From: Serratia liquefaciens
GTDB taxonomy: Bacteria; Pseudomonadota; Gammaproteobacteria; Enterobacterales; Enterobacteriaceae
Assembly: GCF_027594825.1 (NCBI RefSeq)
Contig: NZ_CP088930.1
Coordinates: 744,001-808,000, forward strand
Reading direction: 5' to 3'
DNA length: 64,000 nucleotides
The notes beneath the pieces were generated by a model that worked only from the letters and a program-made list of their open reading frames with translations, was not told the origin of the DNA and ran no database searches. Below, piece after piece: positions 15,001 through 49,709 of this stretch. Numbering within the stretch: position 1 is the first letter of the stretch; the number at the start of each line of letters is the position of its first letter. The position numbers were made by a program, and so were the translations under genes.

Positions 15001-15060
15001 GTTATATGAAAAAGTGAAATAACTGTCACTATTATAGTCACTGTACTCCGTGCTTAACTT
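15001..15060. promoter_or_regulatory. Divergent promoter/operator region between the MocR-type gene and cioA
   Basis: Three ACTGT words (15002-15006 as ACTGT in reading AACTGTTATATG, then 15022-15026 and 15040-15044) flank the palindrome ACTATTATAGT at 15028-15038. MocR/GntR regulators often bind repeated short words overlapping their own promoter, so this is a reasonable autoregulatory site. The TATTATAG stretch could also supply a -10 element. No experiment-grade promoter assignment is possible from sequence alone. Confidence 0.4.
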
Positions 15061-15133
15061 GGCGCCAAGCTTTCCACAAAAAAATTGCAGCTATACTGAA
15101 GAGGTTATTTTATGTCCAACCCAAGGAGGCGCC

Positions 15134-16534
15134 ATGCTGGGTCTTGATGCACTGGAACTTGCCAGAATACAGTTCGCCTTCACCGTTTCTTTCCATATTA
15201 TTTTTCCTGCAATCACCATAGGCTTGGCCAGTTACCTGGCGGTGCTGGAAGGGCTATGGCTGAAAACACGCAATGAAGCCTATCGCGACTTGTACCATTT
15301 CTGGTCGAAAATTTTTGCCGTCAACTTCGGCATGGGGGTGGTTTCGGGGCTGGTAATGGCCTATCAGTTCGGCACCAACTGGAGCTTCTTCTCCGAGTTC
15401 GCCGGCAGTATCACCGGCCCGTTGCTGACCTATGAAGTGCTGACCGCCTTCTTCCTGGAGGCCGGCTTCCTTGGGGTGATGTTGTTCGGTTGGAACCGCG
15501 TCGGCCCAGGGTTGCACTTCTTCGCGACCTGCATGGTGGCGCTGGGCACCCTGATTTCCACCTTCTGGATCCTGGCGTCCAACAGCTGGATGCAAACGCC
15601 GCAGGGTCACGAAATCATCAACGGCCAGGTGGTACCGGTCGACTGGCTGAAAGTGATATTCAACCCGTCATTCCCGTACCGTCTGTTGCACATGTCGACC
15701 GCCGCTTTCCTGTCTTCGGCCTTCTTCGTGGGCGCTTCCGCCGCCTGGCACCTGCTGCGCGGGCGTGACACGCCGGCAATGCGCAAAATGCTGTCAATGG
15801 CGATGTGGATGGCGCTGATCGTCGCGCCGGTACAAGCCCTGATTGGTGATGCGCACGGCCTGAATACGCTGAAGTACCAGCCGGCGAAGATTGCCGCCAT
15901 TGAAGGCCACTGGGAAAACCCGCCGGGAGAGGCGACGCCGCTGATCCTGTTCGGTTGGCCGGACATGGAGCGTGAAGAGACTCGCTTCAAGCTGGAAGTG
16001 CCCTATCTTGGCAGCCTGATCCTGACTCACAGCCTGACCGAACAGGTCCCGGCGCTGAAATCCTTCCCGCCGGAGGATCGCCCCAACTCTACCGTGGTGT
16101 TCTGGTCGTTCCGCATCATGGTGGCGCTGGGCATGCTGATGATCTTCGCCGGGGTTTGGAGCCTGTGGCTGCGCTGGCGCGGCGGGCTGTACCAGTCCCG
16201 CCCCTTCCTGTACTTCATCCTGTGGATGGGGCCATCCGGGTTGGTGGCGCTGCTGGCGGGTTGGTTCACCACCGAAATCGGCCGACAGCCGTGGGTGGTC
16301 TATGGTCTGCTGCGCACCAAAGATGCGGTTTCCGCGCACGGTGACCTGCACATGAGCATCAGCCTGCTGGCGTTTATCATCGTTTACTGTTCGGTGTTCG
16401 GCGTGGGGTACTCCTACATGATGCGTCTGATCCGCAAAGGACCGCAGCAGCATGAAAGCAATGAAGACGACACGGACGGCAGACCGGCTCGCCCGCTGTC
16501 TGCGGTAAAAGAAACTCTGGATGACAGGAGCTGA
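15134..16534 (+). CDS. cioA: Cytochrome bd-type quinol oxidase subunit I (CIO type)
   Basis: This 466-residue inner-membrane haem subunit oxidises quinol and reduces oxygen to water. It starts [26 protein letters not shown], where His near residue 20 is the haem b595-type ligand seen across CydA proteins. [13 protein letters not shown] is the conserved C-terminal part. A strong AAGGAGG at 15123-15129 fixes the start at 15134. The short length and short quinol loop indicate the cyanide-insensitive (CioA) branch rather than the 520-residue CydA. It is followed 2 bases later by subunit II. Confidence 0.92.
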
Positions 16535-16536
16535 GC

Positions 16537-17544
16537 ATGGGTATTGATCTTCCGTTGATTTGGTTTGTGATCATCGTGTTCAGCACCATGATGTACGTGG
16601 TAATGGACGGCTTTGATTTGGGTATCGGTATTCTGTTCCCCTGGGTCAAGGACAGCGGTGACCGCGATGTGATGATGAACACCGTCGCACCGGTTTGGGA
16701 CGGTAACGAAACCTGGCTGGTGCTGGGCGGTGCGGCGCTGTTTGGCGCCTTCCCGTTGGCCTACGCGGTGATCCTCGATGCGCTGGCCATTCCGCTCACC
16801 CTGATGCTGTTCGGGCTGATCTTCCGCGGCGTGGCCTTTGAATTCCGCTTCAAGGCCAAGGAAGAAAAGCGGCATATCTGGGATAAGGCGTTTATCTGGG
16901 GATCTCTGTTCGCCACCTTCAGTCAGGGGGTGGTAGTGGGCGCCATCATCAATGGCTTCCCGGTCAACGGCCGCAGCTATGCCGGAGGAGCCCTTGACTG
17001 GCTGACGCCGTTCGCGCTGTTTTGCGGGTTGGGGCTGGTGGTGACCTATGCACTGCTGGGCTGTACCTGGCTGGTAATGAAGACCGCCGGTGACCTGCAG
17101 GCTCGCATGTATCGGTTGGCGACGCCGCTGCTGGTCACTTTGCTGCTGGTGTTGGCGGTGGTCAGTATCTGGACGCCGATTGCCCATCCCGAGATCGCCA
17201 GCCGCTGGTTTACGCTGCCGAACCTGTTCTGGCTGCTACCGGTTCCGGTACTGGTGTTGCTCAGCGCCTGGGGGATCCAGCGCGGCGTGAACAACGCGGC
17301 GCACTATTCGCCGTTCTTGCTGACCCTGCTGCTGGTGTTCCTCGGCCTGAGCGGCTTGGGCATCAGCATCTGGCCGCTGCTGATCCCACCGTCCATCACC
17401 CTGTGGGACGCCGCCGCACCGCCGCAAAGCCTGGGCTTTATGCTGGTCGGCGCGCTGTTCATCATCCCGATTATTTTGGTCTACACCTTCTGGAGCTACT
17501 ACGTGTTCCGCGGCAAGGTCAGCCATGAACAGGGTTACCATTGA
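16537..17544 (+). CDS. cioB: Cytochrome bd-type quinol oxidase subunit II (CIO type)
   Basis: This 335-residue inner-membrane subunit pairs with CioA. The N-terminal block MYVVMDGFDLGIGILFPW and APVWDGNETWLVLGGAALFGAFPLAYA are hallmarks of CydB/CioB. Eight or so hydrophobic helices follow, ending with YYVFRGKVSHEQGYH. It is encoded in one operon with cioA and the small membrane subunit downstream. Confidence 0.93.
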   Translation: MGIDLPLIWFVIIVFSTMMYVVMDGFDLGIGILFPWVKDSGDRDVMMNTVAPVWDGNETWLVLGGAALFGAFPLAYAVILDALAIPLTLMLFGLIFRGVAFEFRFKAKEEKRHIWDKAFIWGSLFATFSQGVVVGAIINGFPVNGRSYAGGALDWLTPFALFCGLGLVVTYALLGCTWLVMKTAGDLQARMYRLATPLLVTLLLVLAVVSIWTPIAHPEIASRWFTLPNLFWLLPVPVLVLLSAWGIQRGVNNAAHYSPFLLTLLLVFLGLSGLGISIWPLLIPPSITLWDAAAPPQSLGFMLVGALFIIPIILVYTFWSYYVFRGKVSHEQGYH

Positions 17545-18321: not shown

Positions 18322-19428
18322 TCAACGATCAGCTGGCTTACGCCCCATCGCCCCGAGAAACCGTTGCTGCATGCCCAGTAACCTTTTCAGACTGAGGCAT
18401 TGATAATCCAGGCCGTGCTGCGCGGCCACCTCGGCAATGATCTTGGCCAGCGCCGGGTAATGCCGGTGATTCCAATGGGGGAACAGATGGTGCGTCAGGT
18501 GCAGGTTAGCCCCGCCAAGCCAATAGCCCAGCCACGACGGAGAAGCTTGCCAGTCAAAGGTGGTGGCAAAAACGTGCTGGTACCAACCGTGCGCCAGCCG
18601 TCCCTGTTCGGGGGCCTGATAAAAGTTGGCCTTGGCCCAGTGGGTACCGACAATCAGCATCACAAACACCAGTGACGACAGCATCTGGCTGAGCAGATAG
18701 GTCAGTAACACCATTCCGGCACTGACCGCCGGCGGCATCAGCCACAGAGGAATGGCCAGCGCCAGGGTAAAATGCGCCAGCTTGCCCAACAGGAAAATCC
18801 CCCACCCCTTCCGGCCCTGGAACATCATCTTCGGCGCCATACGCGTTTTACCGGCGCGATCCAGCCAGTCGAACAACCAGATGTAATAAGGGAAAGTCAG
18901 CGCCGCGACGATCGGCCAATAGTAGGGCTGCAGGCGCATAAATGCCTTGCGACGCTGGAACGGCGTTTGCCGTAATACGCCGTTAGGTTCAATATCCGGA
19001 TCGTAACCTTCGATATTGTTATAGGCATGGTGGAAGATGACGTGCCGCACCCGCCAACAGTCGGCATCCAGCCCCAAGGGCATACTGACGAAAAAGTTAA
19101 GCCAGTGATTCAACCGTGCGCGTTTGAAAACGGCATTATGCGAGGCGTCGTGCACCACATTGATCGTCAGCATCATGGCGGAAAAAATAAAGCCGACATA
19201 GCAGCCAAAGTAAGCCCAGAAATGTTGCTGCTGCAGGCTCAGCGCGTAAAAACCGGCGCACAACAGTATTAGCGCCAACAGCTTGGCGAACATTCTGCCG
19301 TCGGCAAAACGGTGATCGCCGCGCGTCGCCAGGTAGGCCTGGCTGGCCCGCATCAGGTCCTGGTGGATCTCACTCGCCTCTCGCTGGAACGCCAAGGGCG
19401 GTAGCGGTGTGGTGTCCGGCATTTTCAT
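18322..19428 (-). CDS. Membrane fatty-acid desaturase (second of a tandem pair)
   Basis: This 368-residue integral membrane di-iron desaturase-type enzyme has three histidine boxes: HDASHN at about 114, RHVIFHHAYNN at about 150 and HLTHHLFPHWNHRHYPAL at about 320. Long hydrophobic helices separate them. Family members insert double bonds in acyl chains of membrane lipids or acyl-CoA/ACP. It overlaps the first desaturase as ATGA and is clearly paralogous to it. It is the last gene of the eight-gene lipid operon. The substrate is unknown. Confidence 0.92.
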   Translation of the reverse strand: MKMPDTTPLPPLAFQREASEIHQDLMRASQAYLATRGDHRFADGRMFAKLLALILLCAGFYALSLQQQHFWAYFGCYVGFIFSAMMLTINVVHDASHNAVFKRARLNHWLNFFVSMPLGLDADCWRVRHVIFHHAYNNIEGYDPDIEPNGVLRQTPFQRRKAFMRLQPYYWPIVAALTFPYYIWLFDWLDRAGKTRMAPKMMFQGRKGWGIFLLGKLAHFTLALAIPLWLMPPAVSAGMVLLTYLLSQMLSSLVFVMLIVGTHWAKANFYQAPEQGRLAHGWYQHVFATTFDWQASPSWLGYWLGGANLHLTHHLFPHWNHRHYPALAKIIAEVAAQHGLDYQCLSLKRLLGMQQRFLGAMGRKPADR

Positions 19429-20516
19429 TGCGGTGGTTGCCCCATGGCGCGTAAAAAACGTTGCTGCTGTCGCAATAATTCACGATAGCCGATGCAGCGA
19501 TAATCCATGTTGTGACTTGCTGCCACCTCCGCCAGTATGACGGCCAGCGCCGGATAATGACGATGATTCCAGCCGGGGAACAAATGGTGGGTCAGGTGAT
19601 AATTCAGCCCGCCGGTCAGATGGTGCAGCCACTTCGGCGAGGTTTCCCAATCGCAGGCGGTGGCGAAGTTATGCCGATACCACCCCTGCGGCATCTGGCC
19701 GCCTGCCGGCAGCGCATAAAATTCAGCCTGCGCCCAGTGGGTCCCCAACAGCAAAAACACCACCCACAGCGAGGCCAGCATTTGGCTCAGCAGATAGGCG
19801 ACCAGCACCGTTGGCCAGCCGATGCCATTTTGTTGCCCCACCACCAACGGGATCGCCAGCACCAGCAACAGATGACCTATTTTCCCGGCAATGAACACCG
19901 CCCAGCCCTTGCGTCCGGGCAATACGCCCTTCGCCGCCAGCGGCGTCTTGCCCAAGCGATCCGACCAATCGAACACCAGCGCAATGTACGGCAGCGACAG
20001 CGCGGCAATCAGCGGCCAGTAAAGGTGCTGATAGCGCATATAGGCTCGCCAGCTCTGAAACGGGGTTTGGCGAAAGAAACCGTTCTCTTCCGTATCCAGA
20101 TCGTAATGTTCGACGTTGGCATACACATGGTGATAGCTGACGTGCCGGGTTCGCCAGTAATCCGGATCGACGCCCAGCGGCAGAGTCACCAGCCGCCCGA
20201 CCAGACGATTGACCCACGGCGTGCGGGCGAAGGCGTTGTGTGATGCATCGTGATTAACGTTGACGTTCAGCAACATGCCCATCATGACAAAAGCGAAGTA
20301 ACACAGCATAAAGGCCAAAGGCCGGTGCTGCATCAAACTGAGCAGGTAGAAGCCCACGCAAAGCAGCAGCAAAATCGTGGCCTTGGCCCAACGGGCCGCA
20401 TCGGCAAAACGGTGATCGTCGCGACCGCTCAGATAAGCATGCGCCCGTCGTTTCAATTCCCGATGAAACGCCTGTTCCCCCTCAGCGGGAAAACTCAGCG
20501 GCGGCAAATCAACCAT
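19425..20516 (-). CDS. Membrane fatty-acid desaturase (first of a tandem pair)
   Basis: This 363-residue desaturase has boxes HDASHN, RHVSYHHVYAN and HLTHHLFPGWNHRHYPAL in the same order as its neighbour. I chose ATG 20516 (MVDLPPLSF), with AAGGAGG at good spacing, over longer in-frame starts that lack one. It overlaps the preceding sterol-desaturase-type gene by 8 bases. Similar N-termini (PPLSF / PPLAF) and box contexts show that the pair arose by duplication and may act on different positions of one chain. Confidence 0.92.
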   Translation of the reverse strand: MVDLPPLSFPAEGEQAFHRELKRRAHAYLSGRDDHRFADAARWAKATILLLLCVGFYLLSLMQHRPLAFMLCYFAFVMMGMLLNVNVNHDASHNAFARTPWVNRLVGRLVTLPLGVDPDYWRTRHVSYHHVYANVEHYDLDTEENGFFRQTPFQSWRAYMRYQHLYWPLIAALSLPYIALVFDWSDRLGKTPLAAKGVLPGRKGWAVFIAGKIGHLLLVLAIPLVVGQQNGIGWPTVLVAYLLSQMLASLWVVFLLLGTHWAQAEFYALPAGGQMPQGWYRHNFATACDWETSPKWLHHLTGGLNYHLTHHLFPGWNHRHYPALAVILAEVAASHNMDYRCIGYRELLRQQQRFLRAMGQPPQ

Positions 20517-21627
20517 ACGCGGCCTCCTTTTGGCGTCCCCAGCCGACCGCGACAGCGCAACCGTGAACCACAATGACACCGGCCAGGCTCCACCAGAAAA
20601 CGGACTGCCCATCGGGCACTTTCAATAACCACAAGGGGAAAGCCAGCGTCACCAACAGCCAAACGCCTACGCCCCAGCGGCGACCTTCAGCCATCCCTCC
20701 CAAGGCGATCGCCCCGGTCGCCAACAGCACAAACAACGCCGCCTGCTCGCCGGTCACCCCGTCATAGCCGTAACCAAAACGATAAATATAGCCCAGCACC
20801 AGAGCAAACAGCAGCATGGCCCCGCTCACCAGGCACCCGGCGGAACAGCGGAAACGCCCGCTCTGGGTCGAAGGTTGGAAAGGCAGCTTGAAATAGCGCA
20901 TAAACGGCAGGTTACTGGCCCAAAACGGATTGGCGGAAGATTTGTCGCCACGCACGCCATAGGTAAAAGGTTCCGTCGGCAGAGCCGGGCAAAAGGTGCC
21001 AAACAGCTTGTCCCAGAAGATAAAGCTGCCGCCGAAATTCCGGTTGGAATAGGCCAGGTCTTTAACGTGGTGCACCCGGTGATGCGCCGGCGTCACCAGA
21101 ATGTGCTCCAGAAAGCCGAGTTTTGGGGTCACCGAATTATGGTTAAACAGCTGAATGCTGTAATGCAGGATAGAAACGGTGATAAACACCGACAGCGGCA
21201 CGCCCGCCAATGCCAACAGCATAAAGAACGGGATGGAGGTCAGTGACGAATACCACGAGTTGCGCACGCCCAGTGACAGATTGAAATGCTCGCCCTGGTG
21301 ATGCACCACATGCACCGCCCACAGCAGGCGGAAACGGTGGTGTAACCGGTGTAGCCAGTAAAAACCAAAATCCCAGGCCAGTATCGCAAACAACCACATC
21401 AGCACCGGCGGCCAACCGTCCAGCCAGCCCTGATTGAAATGCGTGACCACGTAGCCGTAGCAGGCAATTTCCAAACCGCGAAACAGCCACAGCATGATAT
21501 GCCCGGAGTTGAGGTTGAAAATCACGTCATGCCAATCGACGCTGCCCTTGCGCCGCCACTGCAGCCACAGGGCTTCCCCCAGCACCACCAACAGCATAAA
21601 CACGATAGGTATCACCAGATCGATCAT
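20509..21627 (-). CDS. Sterol desaturase / fatty-acid hydroxylase superfamily membrane protein
   Basis: This 372-residue membrane protein belongs to the fatty-acid hydroxylase superfamily. The histidine clusters HRLHHRFRLLWAVHVVHH (about 95-112) and TPAHHRVHHVKD (about 184-195) are the di-iron ligands of C4/C5 sterol oxidases and bacterial hydroxylases. Membrane helices lie before and after. The ATG at 21627 overlaps the PAP2 stop as ATGA. In the operon it may hydroxylate or desaturate the lipid product. Sterols are not expected in such a bacterium, so an acyl chain is the more likely substrate. Confidence 0.9.
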   Translation of the reverse strand: MIDLVIPIVFMLLVVLGEALWLQWRRKGSVDWHDVIFNLNSGHIMLWLFRGLEIACYGYVVTHFNQGWLDGWPPVLMWLFAILAWDFGFYWLHRLHHRFRLLWAVHVVHHQGEHFNLSLGVRNSWYSSLTSIPFFMLLALAGVPLSVFITVSILHYSIQLFNHNSVTPKLGFLEHILVTPAHHRVHHVKDLAYSNRNFGGSFIFWDKLFGTFCPALPTEPFTYGVRGDKSSANPFWASNLPFMRYFKLPFQPSTQSGRFRCSAGCLVSGAMLLFALVLGYIYRFGYGYDGVTGEQAALFVLLATGAIALGGMAEGRRWGVGVWLLVTLAFPLWLLKVPDGQSVFWWSLAGVIVVHGCAVAVGWGRQKEAAYG

Positions 21628-22241
21628 GACTCTTCCCCCTGCCGTACGCCCCAGCCAATCCATTGAACTCGCTGGCAGACGTAGCCCACGCCCCACGCCA
21701 ACGCCGCCCCACTGAGCAAATCCACAAACAGGTGGCGACGCAGTTGCAAGATGGAAAAGGCAATCGCCAGCCCCCAGACGATCAGCAACGCGCTGCGCAG
21801 TTTTTTATGGCTTTCCGCCGCCGCCCACACCGCCAATACCGTCAAGGCGATATGCAGTGAAGGCAGGCAGTTTTGCGACGAATCAACGCCGATCAGCGCC
21901 GCCAGCAAATCAGCACTCACCGAACCCGGCTGAACGCGCGGATAGTCCATCGTCGTCGGCCACAGCAGATAAATGGCGCCCGCCAGCAAGGCGCTAAGCT
22001 GCATGGTAGTTCTGAGCCATTTTAGTCGGTTCAACGGACAAAGCAGATAGCACAGCGGGATAATCAGGAAAAACGACAGATACAGCCAGATGGCGTGCGG
22101 GCTGAACGGGATCGCCCGGTCAACCCAGCCGGGCGTCAGCAAGTGGCCGGCACCTTGCCAGCGATCGCTGCCGTGGTAGATAACCCCGACAAATCCCCAC
22201 CCCAGCAACATCTGCCACAGGCGATAAACAACGATTTTCAT
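21624..22241 (-). CDS. PAP2-superfamily lipid phosphatase/phosphotransferase
   Basis: This 205-residue membrane protein carries the PAP2 motifs CLPSLHIALTV (PSxH) at about 120 and LRRHLFVDLLSG (His and Asp of motif 3) near 162. The first motif (KX6RP) is not obvious, which is closer to the IPC-synthase/Aur1-like branch. Six membrane helices are plausible. It could dephosphorylate a lipid phosphate or transfer a head group. ATG 22241 overlaps the stop of the adenylate-forming enzyme gene as ATGA. Confidence 0.87.
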   Translation of the reverse strand: MKIVVYRLWQMLLGWGFVGVIYHGSDRWQGAGHLLTPGWVDRAIPFSPHAIWLYLSFFLIIPLCYLLCPLNRLKWLRTTMQLSALLAGAIYLLWPTTMDYPRVQPGSVSADLLAALIGVDSSQNCLPSLHIALTVLAVWAAAESHKKLRSALLIVWGLAIAFSILQLRRHLFVDLLSGAALAWGVGYVCQRVQWIGWGVRQGEES

Positions 22242-23524
22242 CCGGCCTCCGGCAAGCGAACAATGCGGCGGCGCTTGGCATCGAACTGCGGCATGATCGC
22301 CTGCGTTTGCAGGTGCCACGCCAGTTGCTCGGTGGCAATACCTTGTTGTTCGAACAGCGCGATCAATTGCCGTTGGCAGCTCGCCAACGCCTCCGGGCTG
22401 CAATCGGCCGTCAGATACAGCTCACTGCCGCCCTGCTGCGTCAGCCGGTAATCCGCCACCGCCGGCAACGCATTGGCTATCACGCGGCGGCATAGGTCGG
22501 CGAAGACCTGCTGCGTTGCGCCCTGCCTGGCCGGCAACAGCAGTTGGTCATCGCAGCGCCCTTCGATACGATCCAATGCCATAGTCGCCTGCCCGCAGGG
22601 ACAGGGTTGTTCGCGCTTCACCAGAATATCGTCCAGGCGATAACGCACTATCGGTTGGGTACGGCGGGTAAAATCGGTAATCAACGGGGTAAAACGCCGC
22701 TCGTCGATCCACTGAGGTTCGACATGAATAAACTCTTCGTTCAGATGCAAAATGCCGTGGCTGCAGGTCGCGGCCAAAAAACCTTCGGTGGCTTGATACA
22801 CTTCCCCCACCTGCGCAAACACCCGTTGCAAACGTTGGCGATCCTGCGGTTCCAGCACTTCGGCCACTGAAATCACTTTTTTAACGCTGAGCTTGAGTTC
22901 ACCGCGTTCAACGGCATCCGCCAGGGCGCACAACACCTGGGCCGGCGCCACGATAATCGTCGGCTGTCCACGCTCAATCTGCGGCAAATGTTCGGCAAAG
23001 GGAGCGAACAGATCGTAAAACGACAGGCTCAGCCAACGGTTATTGACGCTGTGGTACAGGTTGTTGTCGGCCCGCAGGAACAGCGCGACCTTCTCCCCGG
23101 CAAATACCCCCTGCGGCAACATTTTTGCCAGCATGCCCCCGGCCCAAATCTGCTGCTCCTGGGGGCTGACGACGAACACGCCGCGCCGCCCAGAGGTGCC
23201 GGTAGATAAACCGACGCTGTAGTTGCCCACTTTAGGGCTGAAATCGCGATCGCTTTCGCTGCGCCGGGCACAGGCCAAAAGCTCCTCCAATCGCAGACCA
23301 GCGGTGTTCATCCTATCGAAATTGGCCATCATCACCGCCTTGTCCATCGTTGGCCACTCGGTCAGGGGCAATGCACTATAGGGCTGAAAATAGGGACTGT
23401 TCGCCAATACGCGCTGGGCAAAGCGCTTCAGCTGGCGCGCCTGATAGGCCTCCAGCGCCGCCCGTTGGGTAAAGCTCAGTCGCCGCGCACGCAGGTAGTG
23501 CCATAGCGTCATCAGCGGGATCAT
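22238..23524 (-). CDS. Adenylate-forming enzyme, F390-synthetase/PaaK-like
   Basis: This 428-residue cytosolic protein of the PaaK/coenzyme F390 synthetase branch of the ANL superfamily should activate a carboxylate with ATP as an acyl-adenylate and perhaps as a thioester. Visible are the P-loop STGTSGRRGVF at about 110, the segment YQATEGF, YRLDDIL at about 296 and EGRCDDQLLL at about 320, which are the adenylate-binding and hinge motifs. The N-terminal helix (YLRARRLSFTQRAALEAYQ) fits PaaK-like proteins. In OleABCD pathways the OleC ligase acts on a beta-hydroxy acid; this enzyme could do the same here. ATGA overlap with the preceding gene. Confidence 0.87.
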   Translation of the reverse strand: MIPLMTLWHYLRARRLSFTQRAALEAYQARQLKRFAQRVLANSPYFQPYSALPLTEWPTMDKAVMMANFDRMNTAGLRLEELLACARRSESDRDFSPKVGNYSVGLSTGTSGRRGVFVVSPQEQQIWAGGMLAKMLPQGVFAGEKVALFLRADNNLYHSVNNRWLSLSFYDLFAPFAEHLPQIERGQPTIIVAPAQVLCALADAVERGELKLSVKKVISVAEVLEPQDRQRLQRVFAQVGEVYQATEGFLAATCSHGILHLNEEFIHVEPQWIDERRFTPLITDFTRRTQPIVRYRLDDILVKREQPCPCGQATMALDRIEGRCDDQLLLPARQGATQQVFADLCRRVIANALPAVADYRLTQQGGSELYLTADCSPEALASCQRQLIALFEQQGIATEQLAWHLQTQAIMPQFDAKRRRIVRLPEAG

Positions 23525-24327
23525 AAATCCCCCTCATGACACAGGCGGATCTCCGCAGCGCCGCCAAGATAGAGCTGGTTGAGTGCGCCCAGGGTGTCGT
23601 AATAGCTGCGCGGATTGTCCATGATCAGGTTAGCCAACCGCGAAGGGCCACGCAGTTGCTGATAGTTCAGCGGCGACCAGGCGGCATCGCTGGCCAGCAG
23701 CGTCCAGCCGGCATCGGTCAGCACAAAGGCCCCAAGGTGCCCGGCGGCGTGCCCTGGCAGCGGCACGATAACAATTTCTCCGCCGCTGCCCGGCAGCACA
23801 TAGCCCTGTTGGAAAGGGGCCAATGCGGCAGGCAGGCTTTGCAGGGGAAATCCCTCGACGAACTGCAGCGCAGATTCAAAACCTTCCGGAATCAATCCGG
23901 GCACAAATGCCCTTTTCAACGCGGCAAAACCGCGCAGCTCTCGGGTTTGCTGCCACCCTTCGCCGGAGCAAATCATCTTCAGGCTGCTGAAGTCTCGCAG
24001 ACCGGCAATGTGGTCCGCATGAAAGTGCGAAATGATCACCGCCTCGATATCGCCAGTGTTCAGCCCCAGACTGCGCAACTGTTCCAACAGGGCCTGCTGC
24101 GGGCTGAAATAAACCGGCGTCACCTGGCGATAAAGCCGAAAAATGCCGCTGGCGGTGTAATGCTCAAAATGGCTGGCATAACCGGTATCCCACAGCCAGC
24201 GGCGCTCGCCGACTTCCAGCAGATAGGCCCGGGAAGGAAATTTACAGGTGCGCATCGCCGAACCGCGCAGCGCCATGCAGCCCAGATGAGTGCAATAACC
24301 GATTTCAAACGTCATGATGTTAGCCAT
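23521..24327 (-). CDS. Metallo-beta-lactamase-fold hydrolase
   Basis: This 268-residue metallo-hydrolase has the metal motif HFHADHIAG at about 103-111, His within PLPGHAAGHLGA at about 178 and Asp in LLASDAAW at about 199. The pattern is close to N-acyl homoserine lactonase-like members. It could hydrolyse a thioester, lactone or beta-lactone intermediate. This is the position that OleB (an alpha/beta hydrolase) occupies in olefin pathways, but here the fold is different. ATG 24327 has AGGGGA upstream and overlaps the SDR stop by 8 bases. Confidence 0.88.
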   Translation of the reverse strand: MANIMTFEIGYCTHLGCMALRGSAMRTCKFPSRAYLLEVGERRWLWDTGYASHFEHYTASGIFRLYRQVTPVYFSPQQALLEQLRSLGLNTGDIEAVIISHFHADHIAGLRDFSSLKMICSGEGWQQTRELRGFAALKRAFVPGLIPEGFESALQFVEGFPLQSLPAALAPFQQGYVLPGSGGEIVIVPLPGHAAGHLGAFVLTDAGWTLLASDAAWSPLNYQQLRGPSRLANLIMDNPRSYYDTLGALNQLYLGGAAEIRLCHEGDL

Positions 24328-25336
24328 CTGCGATCATCCCCTGCTGCTTTAACCACTGCGCCGTCAGTTCGATCCCCTGCTCCAGACTGTAGCGCGGCCG
24401 ATAACCCAGCACCTCTATCGCCCGGGTGTTATCCAGCGTCATGTCGAAATAGGCCGCCGCAACGCTGTAGCGGGTCAGCATCGGTTCTTTACGGGTGACG
24501 TGGGCCAACAGCTCCATCCCCGTAGCAACGCCCGACAATAAGGGATATGGCACCGCCTCGACGGCGTATTGCCAGCCCAACTGCCGGTTGAGCAGTTGGT
24601 GCAACATATCGGCCAGGCGCTGCGGCTGTTGGTTGGTGATATTGAAAATGCTGCCGGACGGTAAACCTGGTTGACGGCTGGCCAGATCCATCGCATGCAC
24701 CACGTTGAGCACAAAGGTGAGATCCAGATAAGCGGAACCGCCGCCCGGCAAACGCAGCACGCCTTTATCGCGCCGCAGCTGCGCCAGTATCCTTGGCACG
24801 ATGACCCGGTCATGGGGACCGAACAGGCCGCGAGGGCGCAAGATCAGGTAGGTGGTGTGCGGAAAGGCGGACACCTCCGCCGCAATGCTCTGTTCGGCAG
24901 CAAACTTGCTGGCGGCATAATGATTGGCGAAGCGTCGGGAAATATCCGCCTCGGTGACGTTGTGGCGGTGGCTGAAATCGAAATAAACCGCCGGCGTCGA
25001 AATATGGATAAACCGCTGAACCCCGCAACGTCCGGCGGCGCCGGCGAGTTTTTCCGTCACGCGGGTATTGGCCTGATCAAACGCCTCGCGGCTGCCCCAG
25101 GGTGAAGATTTTGCGGCACAGTGCCAGACGATGTCATGGCCTGCGATTAATTGCTCACACTGCTCGTCCCCGGCCACGGTCAGGTCCAGCGCGGTAAACC
25201 TGGCGCCCAGTGCCGCCAACTGCCGCCCCGCGGCAATATCCCGCCCGGTGGCATGCACCTGATGCCCGGCGGCCAACAGCCACTCGGCGGCGTTGCGCCC
25301 CAGCCCGCTGGTCGCTCCGGTCACCAGCACCTTCAT
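24320..25336 (-). CDS. NAD(P)-dependent SDR epimerase/dehydratase (3-beta-HSD/OleD-like)
   Basis: This 338-residue extended short-chain dehydrogenase has the Rossmann motif TGATSGLG at residues 6-13, catalytic YAASK at about 153 and LRPRGLFGPHD near 180. Such enzymes include 3-beta-hydroxysteroid dehydrogenases and OleD, which reduces beta-ketoacyl chains. Next to a ketosynthase III it would reduce the freshly made 3-keto product. Start overlaps the ketosynthase stop as ATGA. Confidence 0.9.
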   Translation of the reverse strand: MKVLVTGATSGLGRNAAEWLLAAGHQVHATGRDIAAGRQLAALGARFTALDLTVAGDEQCEQLIAGHDIVWHCAAKSSPWGSREAFDQANTRVTEKLAGAAGRCGVQRFIHISTPAVYFDFSHRHNVTEADISRRFANHYAASKFAAEQSIAAEVSAFPHTTYLILRPRGLFGPHDRVIVPRILAQLRRDKGVLRLPGGGSAYLDLTFVLNVVHAMDLASRQPGLPSGSIFNITNQQPQRLADMLHQLLNRQLGWQYAVEAVPYPLLSGVATGMELLAHVTRKEPMLTRYSVAAAYFDMTLDNTRAIEVLGYRPRYSLEQGIELTAQWLKQQGMIADG

Positions 25337-26340
25337 GGCAGCAGTACCATGCCGCCCAACGTCAAACCGGCGGCGGTGCCGATCAGCATCACCGGACGTT
25401 CGGCGTTCAACCTGCCGGTTATTGCCGCTTGGTGCAGGGTCGAAGGAATGGAAGCCGCCACCTGATTGCCCCGGTAACGATAGATATCCACCAGGGCCTG
25501 CGGGGAAACATGCAGCCGCTTGCGCATATGCTCCAAAGAGAGATGGCTGGCCTGATGCGGCACCACGGTAGCAATTTGTGCCAGGTTCAGCCCCGCGGCC
25601 GACAGCAAGCGGCCAAGGAAGCTTTCGATCAGCGCCGAAGCCTGGCGGAACAGCTGCTTGCCCTTCATATGGAACAGAAAGTCACTGTCATTCATGCCGG
25701 CGCGCGGGTTGCGGCGCGTACCGCCGGCTCTGATCTCACAAAGATCGCTGCCTTCCGGGTGGGTTTCCATCAGGTAGGACAAAATGCCGCTACGCCCGTC
25801 ACCTTGCTCGACAATAGCGCAGGCCGCACCATCACCGAAGATCAATGAAGACTCTTCATCCTCCCAGTCGATACCGCGCGAAGCGATATCGGCAGAGACA
25901 ATAGCAATGCGCCGATAAACGCCCGTATTGAGCAACCCTGCCGCCACCTGCAGCGCGGAGATAAAACTGACGCAGCTGGTGTTGATATCAAAGCCCGCGA
26001 TCCCCGGCCGCAGTCGTGCCAGTTTAAGAATATGGGCGGCGCTGAAAGGCAATGCCTGCACCGCGATGGCCGAGGCAGAGATCAGCAGATCGATGGAATC
26101 TCGCGGGATCGCATGCCGGGCAAGGGCATCATCCAGCGCAGCGACGGCCAATTCGGCCTGGCTGGCCTCGTTGTCGGCATGGAAACGATGAATAATGCCC
26201 GAACGTTTTTCCACGTAACCGGCTGACTTATTCAGGCGACGGTCCAGCGCCGAGGATTCGACGCACTGCGGCGGCAACGCCGCACCGGTCGCAATAATTT
26301 TAAGAGGCAATAAGCTTTGGGAAAGGCTATTTAGGGTCAT
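25333..26340 (-). CDS. 3-oxoacyl-ACP synthase III family ketosynthase (OleA-like)
   Basis: This 335-residue thiolase-fold condensing enzyme has the complete Cys-His-Asn triad: Cys123 in NTSCVSFISAL, His262 in VVPHQAS and Asn292 in GNQVAASIPST. KIIATGAALPPQ opens the fold. Members of this superfamily start fatty acid or polyketide chains (FabH) or join two acyl chains head to head (OleA). It is the first gene of an eight-gene overlapping operon. A 322-base gap upstream should hold the promoter. No good ribosome site is visible before the ATG at 26340. The genes for standard fatty acid synthesis are absent nearby, so a specialised lipid is likely. Confidence 0.9.
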   Translation of the reverse strand: MTLNSLSQSLLPLKIIATGAALPPQCVESSALDRRLNKSAGYVEKRSGIIHRFHADNEASQAELAVAALDDALARHAIPRDSIDLLISASAIAVQALPFSAAHILKLARLRPGIAGFDINTSCVSFISALQVAAGLLNTGVYRRIAIVSADIASRGIDWEDEESSLIFGDGAACAIVEQGDGRSGILSYLMETHPEGSDLCEIRAGGTRRNPRAGMNDSDFLFHMKGKQLFRQASALIESFLGRLLSAAGLNLAQIATVVPHQASHLSLEHMRKRLHVSPQALVDIYRYRGNQVAASIPSTLHQAAITGRLNAERPVMLIGTAAGLTLGGMVLLP

Positions 26341-26662: not shown

Positions 26663-27340
26663 TTAACGGCGGTTACGCACCAGTTGGTAGCGACGGGTCA
26701 GGTATTCCACCGGCACGCTCCAGATATGCATCAGGCGGCAGAACGGGAACAGCACGAACAGCGTCATGCCCAGCACCATATGTAATTTGAAGATCAACGC
26801 AACGCCAGCCAGATGCTGTGACGCTCCGGCGTGGAAGGTCACCACCGCCTGCGCCCAGGCCACCAGCTTCATCATCTCGCTGCCGTCCATATGCTGGGCG
26901 GAGAACGGAATGGTCAGCAGCCCCAGACACACCTGCACCACCAACAGCGTCAGGATCATTATGTCGGCAAAACTGCTGGTCGCACGCACCCGCGGGTTAG
27001 TCAGGCGACGTTTCAGTAACAGCGCCCCGCCGACCAGCGTCATCACGCCGCAGGCACCGCCGGCAATCATCGCCAGCTTCTGTTTCACGTCGATCGGCAG
27101 GAAAGCTTCATACATCCAGTGCGGCGTCAGCATGCCGAGGAAGTGCCCGGCGAAGATACCCAAAATACCGATATGGAACAGGTTGGAAGCCAACCGCATG
27201 CCCTTTTTATCCAGCATTTGGCTGGAGCCGGCACGCCAGCTGTACTGCCCGTAATCGTAACGCAACCAGCTGCCTATCAGGAAAATCGCTCCCGCCAGAT
27301 AGGGGTAAATATCGAAGAAGAATTGATTTAAAAATTGCAT
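26663..27340 (-). CDS. narI: Respiratory nitrate reductase gamma subunit
   Basis: This 225-residue inner-membrane di-haem cytochrome b passes electrons from quinol to NarH. Five hydrophobic helices and the haem-ligand histidines ([17 protein letters not shown] near 55-70 and [11 protein letters not shown] and [12 protein letters not shown] near 187-212) are as in E. coli NarI, whose length is also 225. It begins 2 bases after narJ. Confidence 0.97.
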
Positions 27341-27342
27341 GA

Positions 27343-28065
27343 TTAGCGTCCTTTGGTTCCGGTTAGCGCATCCGTCAGGTCCAGGTACTGTGGCGCCACC
27401 GCGCCGGCAAAGCGTCGCTGATGCGCCGTTTGCTGTGCCGAAGCGCAGCCTTCCTCACCGAGAAACTTGATCTGCTCCTCTTCCCAGACCGCATCCAGCG
27501 CCTGCGGCGTGTCGTCCCTGGCTTCCCCCGCCACCTGGCTTTCCAGGCTGGCGCTTTTTACCTCGGTGCCGGACAGCGTCAGCAACAGGTCGAACAACAC
27601 CGCATACGGGCTCTCTCTCTGCTGCAAACGTGCGCCCAACAGCGCCAGGATCGGCGCGATATCCTGCAATCCCCCGCGCGCTTCGGCCTGGTTGCGGCTG
27701 GCCAGGTATTCCAGATACAGCGGCAAAAAGTCCGGCAGCTCGCGGCTGTCGATCTCCAGCCCCGCGTCACGGTATTGCGCCATCAGGTCGACCATCGCCT
27801 GGCCGCGATCGCGCGATTCACCATGCACGTGCTCAAACAGCAGCAGCGAGGTGGCGCGGCCACGATCAAACAGTTCGCAGTATTCGGCCTGCACGTCCAG
27901 CAACGGACGAGCACAAAAACGGCGAATAAACAGGATCAGCTGCGCGCTGTGGTGTAAATCCAGTTCGCTGGCCGGCTCCAGCGCCTCGACCAACGCCTGC
28001 TGATGGTCAAACAGCGCCTGCTCCGGGTAGTCCAGCAGCCGGGCAATCACTTTCAGGCTGATCAT
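27343..28065 (-). CDS. narJ: Nitrate reductase assembly chaperone
   Basis: This 240-residue cytoplasmic chaperone binds NarG during molybdenum-cofactor and FeS-cluster insertion and is not part of the final enzyme. The all-helical N-terminal domain ([18 protein letters not shown]) and [31 protein letters not shown] block, split here as [18 protein letters not shown] and [12 protein letters not shown], are diagnostic of the NarJ family. ATGA overlap with narH. Confidence 0.96.
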
Positions 28066-29606
28066 GAGGCATCCTCCTGGCGAGTGGTTTTTTGCGTCAC
28101 ATCAATGGCGTCAATGCGGCGGCTGTTGAACAGATTGAATTTACCGTCGCTGCCGTGGCAGCCGTCACCAAAGCTGAAACCGCAACCTTTGCTTTCCGGG
28201 AAGGCTTCACGTGCCAACTCGCGGTGGCTGGACGGGATCACAAAGCGGTCTTCATAGTTGGCGATCGCCAGATAACGGTACATTTCCTGCGCCTGCGCTT
28301 CGGTCAACCCCACCTGCTCCAGCGCACTGGTGTCCAGTACGCCGTCAACGGTTTCCGCCCGTTTGTAGTGGCGCATTGCCAGCATGCGTTTGAGTGCCAA
28401 CAGCACCGGCGCGGTGTCCCCGGCGGTCAGCAAGTTGGCCAGATATTGCACCGGGATACGCAGGCTTTCCACGTCCGGCAATACGCCGCTGTGCGCCAGC
28501 TCACCGGCATCGGCGGCGGATTGTATCGGTGACAGCGGCGGGACGTACCACACCATCGGCAACGTGCGGTATTCCGGGTGCAGCGGCAGCGCCAGCTTCC
28601 AGTCCATTGCCATTTTATACACCGGCGACTGCTGCGCGGCCTCGATCACGCCTTGCGGAATGCCGTCCTGCAACGCCTGGGCAATCACCGCCGGGTCGTG
28701 CGGATCCAGGAAGATATCCAACTGGCGCTGATAGAGATCCTGCTCGTTCTCGGCAGCGGCGGCCTGCTCAATGCGATCGGCGTCATACAGCAGCACGCCC
28801 AGATAGCGGATACGGCCAACGCAGGTTTCCGAACACACCGTCGGCTGGCCGGATTCGATACGCGGGTAGCAGAAGATGCACTTCTCGGACTTGCCGCTCT
28901 TCCAGTTGAAATAGATTTTTTTGTACGGACAGCCGGTCAGGCACATGCGCCAGCCACGGCATTTATCCTGATCGATCAGCACAATGCCGTCTTCGCCACG
29001 CTTGTAGATGGCGCCGCTTGGGCAAGTCGCGACACAGGCCGGGTTAAGGCAGTGTTCGCACAGGCGCGGCAAGTACATCATGAAGGTGTTTTCGAACTGG
29101 CCGTACATCGCCTTCTGCATATTGTCGAAGTTTTTGTCCTGCGAGCGTTTCTCGAATTCGCCGCCGAGGATCTCCTCCCAGTTCGGGCCGCTTTCGATCT
29201 TCTTCATACGCTGGCCGGTGATCAGCGAGCGCGGACGGGCGATCGGCTGATGCTTCCCCTGCGGCGCGGTATGCAGGTTCTGATAGTCGTAGTCGAAAGG
29301 CTCGTAGTAATCGTCCAGCGCAGGCACGTCCGGGTTGGCGAAAATCTTCGACAACAGGCCGACGCGGCTACCCATACGCGGTTCCAGCTTGCCGTTGATT
29401 TTACGGATCCAACCGCCCTTCCACTTTTCCTGATCTTCCCAGGCGTGCGGGTAACCGACGCCGGGTTTGCTTTCGACGTTGTTGAACCAGGCGTACTCCA
29501 TACCCTCGCGGCTGGTCCAGACGTTCTTGCAGGTCACCGAACAGGTATGGCAACCGATGCATTTGTCCAGGTTCAGCACCATGCCGACTTGTGAACGAAT
29601 TTTCAT
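28062..29606 (-). CDS. narH: Respiratory nitrate reductase beta subunit
   Basis: This 514-residue iron-sulfur subunit carries electrons from NarI to NarG. Four cysteine sets are visible: CIGCHTCSVTC at about 16, CEHCLNPACVATC near 184, CRGWRMCLTGC near 217 (Trp replaces a Cys, giving the 3Fe-4S cluster) and CIFCYPRIESGQPTVCSETC near 244. Length matches the family (about 512). ATGA overlap with narG. Confidence 0.97.
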   Translation of the reverse strand: MKIRSQVGMVLNLDKCIGCHTCSVTCKNVWTSREGMEYAWFNNVESKPGVGYPHAWEDQEKWKGGWIRKINGKLEPRMGSRVGLLSKIFANPDVPALDDYYEPFDYDYQNLHTAPQGKHQPIARPRSLITGQRMKKIESGPNWEEILGGEFEKRSQDKNFDNMQKAMYGQFENTFMMYLPRLCEHCLNPACVATCPSGAIYKRGEDGIVLIDQDKCRGWRMCLTGCPYKKIYFNWKSGKSEKCIFCYPRIESGQPTVCSETCVGRIRYLGVLLYDADRIEQAAAAENEQDLYQRQLDIFLDPHDPAVIAQALQDGIPQGVIEAAQQSPVYKMAMDWKLALPLHPEYRTLPMVWYVPPLSPIQSAADAGELAHSGVLPDVESLRIPVQYLANLLTAGDTAPVLLALKRMLAMRHYKRAETVDGVLDTSALEQVGLTEAQAQEMYRYLAIANYEDRFVIPSSHRELAREAFPESKGCGFSFGDGCHGSDGKFNLFNSRRIDAIDVTQKTTRQEDAS

Positions 29607-32600
29607 TTTGCTTTCTCCTGCTGGCTGCCCTGCGAGTCGTCGTTGCCTTCACCGTCTAACCAATCGATGCGGTTCATTTTGCGTACCACCACAAACTCGT
29701 CGCGGTTGGAGCCGACGGTGCCGTAATAGTTGAAACCGTAGGCCAGCTGCGCGTAACCACCGATCATATGGGTCGGTTTCGGGCAGACGCGGGTCACCGA
29801 GTTGTGAATGCCGCCGCGCTGGCTGGTGATTTCCGAGCCGGGAATGTTCACGATGCGTTCTTGCGCGTGGTACATCATGGTCATGCCGGCAGGAATACGC
29901 TGGCTGACCACCGCCCGAGCGGTCAGTGCGCCGTTGGCGTTAAAGGCTTCGATCCAGTCGTTATCCTCAATGCCCAGATCTTTGGCGTCGTCTTCGCTCA
30001 TCCAGACGATCGGCCCACCGCGCGACAGGGTCAGCATCAGCAGGTTGTCGCTGTAGGTGGAGTGAATGCCCCACTTCTGGTGCGGCGTCAGGAAGTTCAA
30101 CGCCTTCTCTTTATTGCCGTTCGGCTTCTGGTTCAGCAACGGCTGCGCGGCGCGAGTATCGATCGGCGGACGGTACACCAGCAGGCTCTCGCCAAAGGCG
30201 CGCATCCACTCGTGGTCCTGATACAACTGCTGGCGGCCGCTGATGGTGCGCCATGGGATCAGCTCATGCACGTTGGTATAACAGGCGTTATACGACACGT
30301 GTTCATCTTCCAGCCCTGACCAGGTGGGGCTGGAAATGATTTTGCGCGGCTGGGCCTGAATATCGCGGAAGCGGATTTTTTCGTCTTCCTTGTTCAGCGC
30401 CAGGTGGCGGTGATCGCGTCCGGTCATTTTGCCCAGAGCTTCCCACGCCTTGACCGCCACCTGCCCGTTGGTTTCCGGTGCTAACGTCAGGATCACTTCG
30501 GCGGCATCAATGGCGCTTTCAATTTTCGGCCGCCCCGCTGCCGGGCCTGCGGTTTTGACGTAGTTGAGCTTTTTCAGGAAGTCGACTTCGTCCTGGGTGT
30601 TCCAGCCAATGCCTTTCCCGCCGTTGCCCAGCTTATCCAGCAGCGGCCCCAGTGAAGTGAAACGCTCATAGGTGGCTGGGTAATCGCGCTCCACCGCCAT
30701 GATATGCGGCGCGGTTTTGCCGGGGATCAGTTCACATTCGCCCTTTTTCCAGTCTTTGACGCCGTAAGGCTGCGCCAGCTCGGCGGCTGAGTCATGCTGG
30801 ATCGGCAGCGTCACCACGTCGGTTTCCTGCCCCAGATGCCCGACACAGACTTCGGAGAAGGCTTTGGCGATGCCCTTGTAGATTTCCCAGTCGCTCTTGG
30901 AGTCCCAGGCCGGATCGACCGCCGCCGACAGCGGGTGAATAAACGGATGCATATCCGAGGTATTCATGTCGTCTTTTTCGTACCAGGTGGCGGTCGGCAG
31001 CACGATGTCGGAATAGAGGCAGGTGCTGGACATGCGGAAATCCAGGGTCACCACCAGATCCAGCTTGCCTTCGCCGCCGTTATCCCGCCATTCCACTTCC
31101 TGCGGCTTGGCACCGCCCTGCTGGCCCAGATCCTTGCCCTGAATGCCGTTTTCGGTGCCCAACAGGTATTTGAGCATGTACTCATGACCCTTGCCGGAGG
31201 AACCCAGCAGGTTAGAGCGCCAAACGAACAGGTTACGCGGGAAATTCTGTGGGTTGTCCGGCTGCTCGGCGGCAAAGCCCAGCGTCCCTTTCTTCAGGGC
31301 GTCGACGGTGTACTCCACCGGCGATTGTCCTGCGGCTTGCGCCTGCGCCGCCAAATGCAGTGGGTTGGTGCCCAGCTGTGGTGCGGATGGCAACCAGCCC
31401 ATGCGCTCGGCACGCACGTTGAGATCGATCAGGCTCCCGCCGAAGCGTGATTTGTCCGCCATCGGCGACAACAGCTCTTCGGTTCCCACGGTTTCATAAC
31501 GCCACTGGCTGGAATGGTTATAGAAGAACGAGGTGCTGTTCATATGACGCGGCGGACGTTGCCAGTCGAGGCCAAATGCCAGCGGCAGCCAGCCGGTCTG
31601 CGGCCGCAGCTTTTCCTGGCCGACGTAGTGCGCCCAGCCACCACCGCTCTGGCCAACGCAGCCGCAGAAGATCAGCATGTTGATCAGCCCACGGTAGGTC
31701 ATGTCCATGTGGTACCAGTGGTTGATACCGGCACCGACGATAATCATCGAACGGCCATGAGTTTTCTCGGCGTTGTCGGCAAATTCGCGCGCAATGCGGA
31801 TGATGTTGTGGCGGGAAACGCCGGTGATCTGCTCGGCCCAGGCCGGGGTATAGGCTTTGACGTCGTCGTAGTCGGTAGCGCAGTTGGCGTCATTCAGGCC
31901 ACGCTCAAGGCCGTAGTTGGCCAGGGTCAAATCGTACACGCTGGTCACCAGCGCTTCGCTGCCGTCTGCCAGGCGCAGGCGTTTGACCGGCAGCTTGTGC
32001 AGCAGGATCTCGTCCAGCGCCACGCTGTTGAAGTTCCCGCCCTCGGCAGCGCCGCTTTTGATGCCGCCAAAGTAAGGGAACCCCACCTCGGCCACTTCGT
32101 CATGCGCGCCCAGCAGGCTGAGTTGCAACTCCACTTCCTGCTGGTCCTGACCGGCGCGTTGCTCCAGGTTCCATTTGCCCTGTTCGCCCCAGCGGAAACC
32201 GATCGACCCCTGTGGAGCAACCAGCTCGCCGCTGCGTTGATCAATGGCAACGGTTTTCCATTCAGGGTTATTTTCTTGCCCCAGGCCGTCGACCAAATCG
32301 GCGGCGCGCAGCAGGCGACCGGCGGCATAATGCCCCTCTTCGCGCGGCTCCAGCATAACCAGCATCGGCATGTCGGTATAACGACGCACGTAATCGCGGA
32401 AATAGCCCACCTCACGATCCAGGTGGAACTCTTTCAGCATCACGTGGCCCATCGCCAGCGCCATGGCGCTGTCGGTGCCCTGCTTCGGATTCAGCCACTG
32501 GTCGCACAGCTTGGCGACTTCGGCGTAGTCCGGCGTGACCGCCACGGTTTTGGTGCCTTTATAACGGACTTCAGTGAAGAAGTGCGCGTCCGGGGTGCGC

Positions 32601-48752: not shown

Positions 48753-49709
48753 CTAGGAAAACTCATGCTTAATTGTTTTTTCGATTGCCGAATCAAGTTC
48801 GACCGGCGCCACGAAATCACATTGCACATTGCTTTTAAATTGTGTTCTGGCACAGAATTTCTGCACCCGGACGCGGCTAATAGGAAATTTTCGGCGACTT
48901 ATTTTACTCACCACATCTAATGCCGTTGCCCCGCAGATCCCAAATACGTAAGGAATGCGAATAGTCTTATTATTTCGGCCTAGTGAAGAAGAAATAACGT
49001 CCACCAGCTGATTCATGGTGAAGTCAGGCTTATCAACATAATTGCTGACCTGATAAGTGGCCTGTTGATCCAGTGCGTACTCGAGTCTGGCGGCAATATT
49101 CTCAACGTAGGCCATGGACTTCATATTATTGCCGCTGCCTATCATCACAAAGCGGCCGCTGGCAATTTGGCGGAACAGGTTATAAACGTTGCCGCGATTG
49201 TTTTCGCCAAACACCACCGTCGGGCGGATGATGGTTAATTTGTTACTGCCATCGGCTTTCCGCCAGGCTTCGTAGACATATTCCGCTTCCAATTTGGATT
49301 TGCCGTAATGGTTAAAGGGCTCGAAAACCCCTTCTTCGCCGGTTTCCCGGGTCACGAAACCATAGACCGCCACGGAGGAGGTAAAGATAATCTGTTGGAT
49401 ATTCAGCGCCGATGCTGTCATGCAGACATTGCGCGCCCCATCAACGTTAACCTGATAATACAGTGAGATAGGATCAACATTATCCTGATGCTCAGCCGCA
49501 AGGTTGATCACGGCGTCACACCCTGCCAACGGCTCCTGCAGGGTCTGGGGCTGGGTTACATCGCCAAACTGATAGAGCTCGGGAAAATGCTCGCTCCGCT
49601 TTTTATCCACGATGGTCAACACCAGGTCGTCACGCGCACTCAGGCGCTTAACCAAACGCGTTCCGATAAAGCCGGAACCCCCGATGATCGCTACTTTACG
49701 CTTATCCAT
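48753..49709 (-). CDS. NAD-dependent sugar epimerase/dehydratase-like SDR
   Basis: This 318-residue extended SDR has the Rossmann motif GGSGFIGTRLVKRLS at 10-24 (GxxGxxG), catalytic YGKSK near 143 and IRPTVVFGENNRGN near 174. Length and motifs match WcaG/GalE-like enzymes that make nucleotide sugars. It lies upstream of the ops element and so probably has its own promoter. The exact reaction is not evident. Confidence 0.87.
   Translation of the reverse strand: MDKRKVAIIGGSGFIGTRLVKRLSARDDLVLTIVDKKRSEHFPELYQFGDVTQPQTLQEPLAGCDAVINLAAEHQDNVDPISLYYQVNVDGARNVCMTASALNIQQIIFTSSVAVYGFVTRETGEEGVFEPFNHYGKSKLEAEYVYEAWRKADGSNKLTIIRPTVVFGENNRGNVYNLFRQIASGRFVMIGSGNNMKSMAYVENIAARLEYALDQQATYQVSNYVDKPDFTMNQLVDVISSSLGRNNKTIRIPYVFGICGATALDVVSKISRRKFPISRVRVQKFCARTQFKSNVQCDFVAPVELDSAIEKTIKHEFS

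What the first reader, a model, noticed from the sequence alone, without database searches (positions are those of the whole stretch)
18322..26340. Eight-gene overlapping operon for a probably undescribed lipid
Ketosynthase III (complete Cys-His-Asn triad), SDR, MBL-fold hydrolase, F390/PaaK-type adenylate-forming enzyme, PAP2 protein, sterol-desaturase-type oxidase and two desaturases are read in one direction. Each overlaps the next by 4 to 8 bases (five as ATGA). The first four classes mirror the OleA-OleD-OleB-OleC logic of head-to-head olefin or beta-lactone synthesis (condense, reduce, activate, hydrolyse), but an MBL-fold enzyme replaces the alpha/beta hydrolase and a PaaK-like enzyme replaces OleC. 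The three oxidases and the PAP2 protein would then tailor and place the product in the membrane. No known pathway with this exact set is recalled.
Basis: partly seen in the sequence, partly recalled or inferred. Interest (0 to 1): 0.88.

Follow-up and report, generated by a model that had tools for sequence, protein, structure and literature searches.

The report
Widespread operon for an undescribed lipid
Eight tightly packed genes in this Serratia-like genome belong to a widely shared but apparently undescribed set of enzymes that probably joins two fatty chains and adds a polar head to make an unusual membrane lipid; a version of it is carried by the probiotic E. coli Nissle, so the idea can be tested easily.

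Summary
The eight-gene overlapping operon is real (minus strand, 26340 to 18322). It is not an Ole pathway: the ketosynthase keeps Cys-His-Asn but has Leu or Ile where OleA has its catalytic Glu (85 of 86 copies, one a fragment), and it forms one clade with the chain-fusing ketosynthases MxnB and CorB, apart from FabH and OleA. The first four genes (KS, SDR, MBL hydrolase, TIGR02304 adenylating enzyme) form a conserved cassette, together in 80 of 80 fetched loci and also in Bacillota and Fusobacterium records. Tailoring varies: 64 of 80 loci carry the PAP2 protein, whose predicted fold is closest (modestly) to ceramide head-group transferases; 16 carry a GT21/HpnI-like glycosyltransferase; 74 have at least one. 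Most likely reading: a hydroxylated, probably twin-chain lipid made by head-to-head fusion, desaturated and hydroxylated in the membrane, then given a phospho- or sugar head, with no sphingolipid synthase in the cluster. A seven-gene version is in 672 of 5,426 complete E. coli genomes, including Nissle 1917 and ST131 records. Nine searches of an open-access library (listings partly capped) showed no paper on it. The product is inferred, not shown.

The parts
25333..26340 (-). Ketosynthase III (KS), 335 aa; Cys123-His262-Asn292; Leu97 at the OleA-Glu117 position
24320..25336 (-). OleD/3beta-HSD-like SDR reductase, 338 aa; best NCBIfam model OleD at 141.9 bits, far below its cut-off of 580
23521..24327 (-). 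MBL-fold hydrolase, 268 aa; best models are lactonases (4-pyridoxolactonase 55.6 bits, cut-off 325); HxHxDH in 81 of 81 copies
22238..23524 (-). Adenylate-forming enzyme, TIGR02304 (590.7 bits, cut-off 251.9), PaaK-like predicted fold
21624..22241 (-). PAP2 (PAP2_3) membrane protein, 205 aa; PSLH and RHxxxD motifs; predicted fold nearest to ceramide head-group transferases
20509..21627 (-). FA_hydroxylase/sterol-desaturase type membrane oxygenase, 372 aa; only NCBIfam model OlsE (83.3 bits, cut-off 475)
19425..20516 (-). Fatty-acid desaturase 1, 363 aa
18322..19428 (-). Fatty-acid desaturase 2, 368 aa
26341..26662 (-). 322-bp gap between the narI-like gene and KS, possible promoter region; not analysed

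Best explanation
A biosynthetic operon for a polar, probably twin-chain membrane lipid. (1) KS: head-to-head Claisen fusion of two acyl thioesters from fatty-acid metabolism, at least one of them a beta-ketoacyl chain, as for MxnB/CorB (inferred from clade and residues; no carrier protein among the eight genes). (2) SDR: reduction of the keto group to a hydroxyl (inferred from OleD likeness). (3) MBL enzyme: hydrolysis of the thioester or of a spontaneously formed lactone/pyrone (inferred). (4) TIGR02304 enzyme: adenylation of the freed carboxylate for transfer (family shown; substrate unknown). (5) Desaturases and hydroxylase: oxygen-dependent changes to the chains in the membrane (families shown, sites unknown). 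(6) PAP2: transfer of a phospho head group onto the lipid hydroxyl, like ceramide phosphotransferases; in other species a GT21-type enzyme puts a sugar there instead (inferred from fold and from the alternation of the two).
Confidence: 0.48

Rival explanations
1. Ole-like route to olefin or beta-lactone: KS as OleA, SDR as OleD, adenylating enzyme as OleC, MBL as OleB.
For: SDR best NCBIfam model is OleD, 141.9 bits; the four-step logic could be parallel.
Against: OleA base Glu is Leu/Ile in 85 of 86, one fragment; KS outside the OleA branch; no alpha/beta hydrolase family among the eight proteins, and the adenylating enzyme reaches Pfam AMP-binding only below its cut-off (20 against 29.9 bits). 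An olefin would offer no hydroxyl to PAP2 or GT21 (inference).
Confidence: 0.08
2. FabH-type chemistry: KS extends an acyl chain with malonyl-ACP, SDR makes the 3-hydroxyacyl thioester, MBL releases a 3-hydroxy acid, and the adenylating enzyme attaches it to another molecule; a single-chain acylated lipid results.
For: KS matches FabH-type models well though below cut-offs (PRK07204 315 of 402, TIGR00747 187.8 of 292.1 bits) and has the standard triad; identity to FabH (29%) is close to that to MxnB (31%).
Against: The genome has another KSIII, presumably its FabH; the core KS lies outside the FabH clade, with the chain-fusing enzymes.
Confidence: 0.26
3. A diffusible signal or antibiotic-like metabolite (pyrone, butenolide or amino-acid conjugate) rather than a membrane lipid; the adenylating enzyme, and elsewhere ATP-grasp and GNAT enzymes, make an amide or ester.
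For: ATP-grasp beside or inside the core in Pontibacillus, Paenibacillus, Paraburkholderia and L144, GNAT in Paenibacillus and Paraburkholderia; nearest structures of the adenylating enzyme include natural-product AMP-ligases such as NatL2 and AjiA1.
Against: In the 80 loci the recurrent partners are membrane desaturases, hydroxylase, PAP2 and GT21.
Confidence: 0.18

Closest known systems
MxnB/CorB (myxopyronin and corallopyronin chain-fusing ketosynthases)
   Same: Same KS clade, Cys-His-Asn, hydrophobic residue at the OleA-Glu position, Q-x-[LIV]-P
   Different: Only 31% identity; here a cassette with SDR, MBL and adenylating enzyme, and no polyketide synthase among the eight genes
OleABCD olefin/beta-lactone pathway
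   Same: Class-level logic condense, reduce, activate, hydrolyse; SDR is OleD-like
   Different: KS lacks the Glu base; MBL fold instead of alpha/beta hydrolase; TIGR02304 enzyme; lipid-tailoring genes attached
Sphingolipid head-group enzymes (SMSr, Aur1/IPC synthase; ceramide glucosyltransferase family GT21)
   Same: PAP2 model folds closest to the first group; module B has a GT21-domain enzyme
   Different: No PLP-dependent enzyme in the operon; acceptor lipid unknown; the GT is also HpnI-like
TIGR02304 F390 synthetase-related proteins
   Same: Full member, 590.7 bits against a cut-off of 251.9
   Different: The model's name gives no function; none was found in the papers seen

Membership tests
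OleABCD pathway | OleA catalytic Glu (E117/PpyS E105) | tested here: not met
   Leu 82, Ile 3, one gap (fragment L040) of 86 KSs
OleABCD pathway | KS groups with OleA | tested here: not met
   OleA pairs with other_L205; the 15 core KSs used group with MxnB/CorB
OleABCD pathway | OleD equivalog score | tested here: not met
   141.9 bits, cut-off 580
OleABCD pathway | OleB-type alpha/beta hydrolase in the operon | tested here: not met
   no such Pfam family among the eight proteins
OleABCD pathway | OleC-type beta-lactone synthetase | tested here: inconclusive
   TIGR02304 member, AMP-binding below cut-off; no direct comparison with OleC was made
MxnB/CorB-type chain-fusing KS | Same clade apart from FabH | tested here: met
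   97/89.7 support, 39-row tree
MxnB/CorB-type chain-fusing KS | Condenses two acyl/beta-ketoacyl chains | not testable with these tools
   needs an enzyme assay
TIGR02304 | Score over curated cut-off | tested here: met
   590.7 against 251.9 bits
Ceramide head-group transferase type PAP2 | Closest fold | tested here: inconclusive
Ceramide head-group transferase type PAP2 | Two His and one Asp of the PAP2 active site | tested here: met
   PSLH and RHxxxD in 65 of 65; shared by PAP2 phosphatases too
Ceramide head-group transferase type PAP2 | Transfers a head group | not testable with these tools
   needs an assay
Bacterial sphingolipid pathway | Serine palmitoyltransferase in the cluster | tested here: not met
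   none of the eight proteins matches a PLP-enzyme family; the rest of the genome was not searched for one

The most novel reading that the evidence does not exclude
A sphingolipid-independent way for bacteria to make ceramide-like lipids: two fatty chains fused head-to-head by a MxnB/CorB-type ketosynthase, reduced, activated, and then capped by ceramide-type phospho-, glyco- or sulfotransferases; spread over Pseudomonadota, Bacillota and Fusobacteriota and present in about an eighth of complete E. coli genomes.
Probability: 0.28. Interest if true: 0.92.

Novelty: new variant of a known kind. Interest (0 to 1): 0.75.

Why it matters
E. coli, Serratia, Pectobacterium, Pseudomonas and Xenorhabdus are well studied, yet a conserved lipid-building operon in them appears undescribed in the library searched. 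If it makes a ceramide mimic or another twin-chain lipid, it adds a lipid class to familiar bacteria (Nissle 1917 and ST131 records carry it), gives TIGR02304 a function, and can be tested with one deletion and a mass spectrometer. A Pseudomonas syringae pv. actinidiae transposon mutant in a 'coenzyme F390 synthetase' appears in a table of a paper whose abstract reports 91 reduced-virulence mutants (PMC9823363, passages); I did not test that this gene is a member of the family.

Tried and rejected
Rejected: OleA-type KS. Malleicyprol-type chain fusion (PMC12304814, passages): a modular condensation and reductase system, no match. Ladderane paper (PMC2649909, passages): F390 synthetase only as an annotation in Desulfotalea. 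Led nowhere: PDB sequence search with the hydroxylase (no hit up to E 1) and with the PAP2 profile (PgpB E 0.06, LpxE 1.8). Paper searches: one search found no paper; ten papers with 'F390 synthetase', of which passages of two were read, the rest seen as listing; one search listed 5 of 6,540, 20 of 65, 10 of 15; some searches listed all they found. Listings show titles and abstract starts only. The KS protein search lists 120 of 3,188 hits; the names I saw are generic. First KS tree put OleA on a very long branch and left the place of MxnB/CorB among the core KSs open, so a second was built.

Sampling: the search for related loci kept the best 80 of 358 relatives, so counts lean to Enterobacterales and Pseudomonas; its patterns include YQATEGF, so that motif is conserved by construction. 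A1 used P0004 and 17 of the 120 hits listed, of 2,415 found. TIGR02304 over its cut-off: 26 of 198 genomes in the family sample, 2 of 369 in the class, 7 of 398 in the phylum, the window's own genome counted in each; control, 1 of 14 named genomes, Deinobacterium chartae, whose neighbourhood I did not look at. L148 and L136 look like decayed cores.

Full report
Observation. Pfam and NCBIfam give: KSIII; OleD/3beta-HSD-like SDR; MBL hydrolase nearest to lactonases, below their cut-offs; TIGR02304 adenylating enzyme at 590.7 bits (cut-off 251.9); PAP2_3; FA_hydroxylase; two FA_desaturases. The window lies in a 5.35-Mb single-contig genome with one TIGR02304 match; close named relatives of that enzyme are Serratia. 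The genome has two matches to the KSIII C-terminal model, this KS and one I take to be FabH (its neighbours by eye).

The core cassette. A scan of genome contigs with the adenylating enzyme gave 358 relatives; the best 80 were fetched. KS, SDR, MBL and adenylating enzyme are together in 80 of 80. Of six distant stretches, L143-L147 hold all four (the SDR of L144 in two frames), L148 has no KS. Of 62 plasmid-collection records with a match, nine were opened and eight scanned: 8 of 8 hold all four. They are clustered in Paracoccus, Ketogulonicigenium, Pontibacillus, Paenibacillus, Paraburkholderia, Burkholderia and, in another order, Fusobacterium, and scattered in Pseudomonas Leaf58. In Pontibacillus and Paenibacillus an ATP-grasp gene sits between KS and SDR.

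The tailoring modules. Among the 80 loci, 64 carry PAP2 and 60 the hydroxylase; 58 of these 60 also have a desaturase, 37 both kinds, and L049 and L099 none. Sixteen carry a second set with an OleD-like SDR, a GT21-domain glycosyltransferase, a small protein without a Pfam match (13 of 16) and a GT1-like glycosyltransferase (15 of 16). PAP2 only 58, GT21 only 10, both 6, neither 6. The six are Snodgrassella (L035) and five Xenorhabdus, of which L103 is cut short. Four other Xenorhabdus have PAP2 upstream of the KS and no hydroxylase. Only the L086 module was scanned against Pfam; the rest were assigned by clustering. The GT's best NCBIfam model is HpnI, 88.7 bits, below its cut-off. A GT and a small protein of the same kinds sit in the Fusobacterium cluster (158.1 and 65.2 bits). 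A sulfotransferase and a TetR gene run divergently from the core in Paracoccus and Ketogulonicigenium; a Rieske oxygenase follows in L144. I infer that these partners act on a hydroxyl or carboxyl of a common product.

The ketosynthase. Across 86 core KSs (window, 80 loci, L143-L147) Cys is present in 85, His and Asn in 86. The OleA Glu position is Leu in 82, Ile in 3 (L143, L144, L147) and missing in the L040 fragment; MxnB and CorB have Val, FabH Phe, OleA Glu. The five more KSs aligned from Bacillota, Fusobacterium, Ketogulonicigenium and Paraburkholderia also have Leu or Ile. Kresovic et al. (PMC4578411; parts 1 and 2 of 3 of the text read) report that exchange of this Glu in PpyS abolished the product and propose that MxnB/CorB, which lack it, may do without because their alpha carbon lies between two carbonyls. 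In a 39-row tree the fifteen core KSs used plus MxnB and CorB form one clade, 97/89.7, against FabH, OleA and fourteen other KSIII. Whether MxnB/CorB lie inside or beside the core KSs is open, and Kresovic et al. placed them inside the FabH clade. Identities to the window KS are 31% (MxnB, CorB), 29% (FabH), 22% (OleA). On balance the KS most likely works like MxnB/CorB (review PMC4901931, passages), fusing two chains head to head with at least one beta-ketoacyl partner.

PAP2 and the head group. AlphaFold2 gives a confident model (pLDDT 91). Foldseek's first three hits are inositol phosphorylceramide synthase, human SMSr and Aur1, E 4e-4 to 9e-3. VIA-align gives SMSr 14.2, Aur1 13.7 and IPC synthase 13.7 over 194-203 residues, then LpxE 12.6 over 149, with the tool's warning on helical folds. 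The motifs PSLH and RHxxxD are in 65 of 65. With GT21 as the other common partner I read this as head-group attachment to a ceramide-like acceptor. This is the most inferred step.

Distribution and literature. 672 of 5,426 complete E. coli genomes match; 671 hold at least 80% of the seven-gene operon of E2348/69, which has one desaturase and lies between narI and tRNA-Tyr/purU. Nissle 1917 and ST131 records are among those listed; K-12 was not looked at singly. A narG-like gene lies in 22 of the 80 stretches, as in the window. Nine library searches showed no paper on the cluster; listings were partly capped and closed-access papers are not covered.

Verdict. Real, coherent, widespread and apparently undescribed. 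Polar, probably twin-chain lipid 0.48; FabH-type single-chain lipid 0.26; small metabolite 0.18; Ole-type 0.08. Against the draft, the first went from 0.50 to 0.48, the second from 0.25 to 0.26, the third from 0.17 to 0.18, the novel case from 0.30 to 0.28 and interest from 0.76 to 0.75, because the check brought in the HpnI score, the weak PAP2 E-values and the small identity gap.

Noticed in passing
window 15050-17544 (+) and 26663-33379 (-): The operon lies between cytochrome bd-type oxidase genes and a narGHJI-like operon (both named by eye; relatives in E. coli are annotated nar). A narG-like gene is in 22 of 80 loci. Oxygen-using lipid enzymes between two low-oxygen respiratory loci is odd.
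   Followed up: partly
L086 13328-13897 and 12 other of the 80 loci; L188 4181-4828: Small protein family with no Pfam or NCBIfam match for the two members scanned; goes with the GT21 gene from Enterobacterales to Fusobacterium. An LxGSCGL motif is invariant in the 13 but not in the Fusobacterium copy.
   Followed up: partly
L192 (NZ_CP141085.1, 385,579 bases): A record called an E. coli plasmid carries narGHJI, the operon, purU, rssAB and galU: chromosomal sequence, either a large excised piece or an assembly fault.
   Followed up: no
L188 (NZ_CP084075.1): A 2.1-Mb 'plasmid' of Fusobacterium vincentii with one annotated feature is probably the chromosome.
   Followed up: no
L148 7657-10527; L136: Shortened or broken core genes in two genomes of the same family, suggesting loss of the pathway.
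   Followed up: no
window 50001-52000: GC falls to 0.42 against about 0.58 around it; a possible DNA-binding regulator (49893-50825) and an epimerase-like gene (48753-49709), named by eye, lie at its edge.
   Followed up: no
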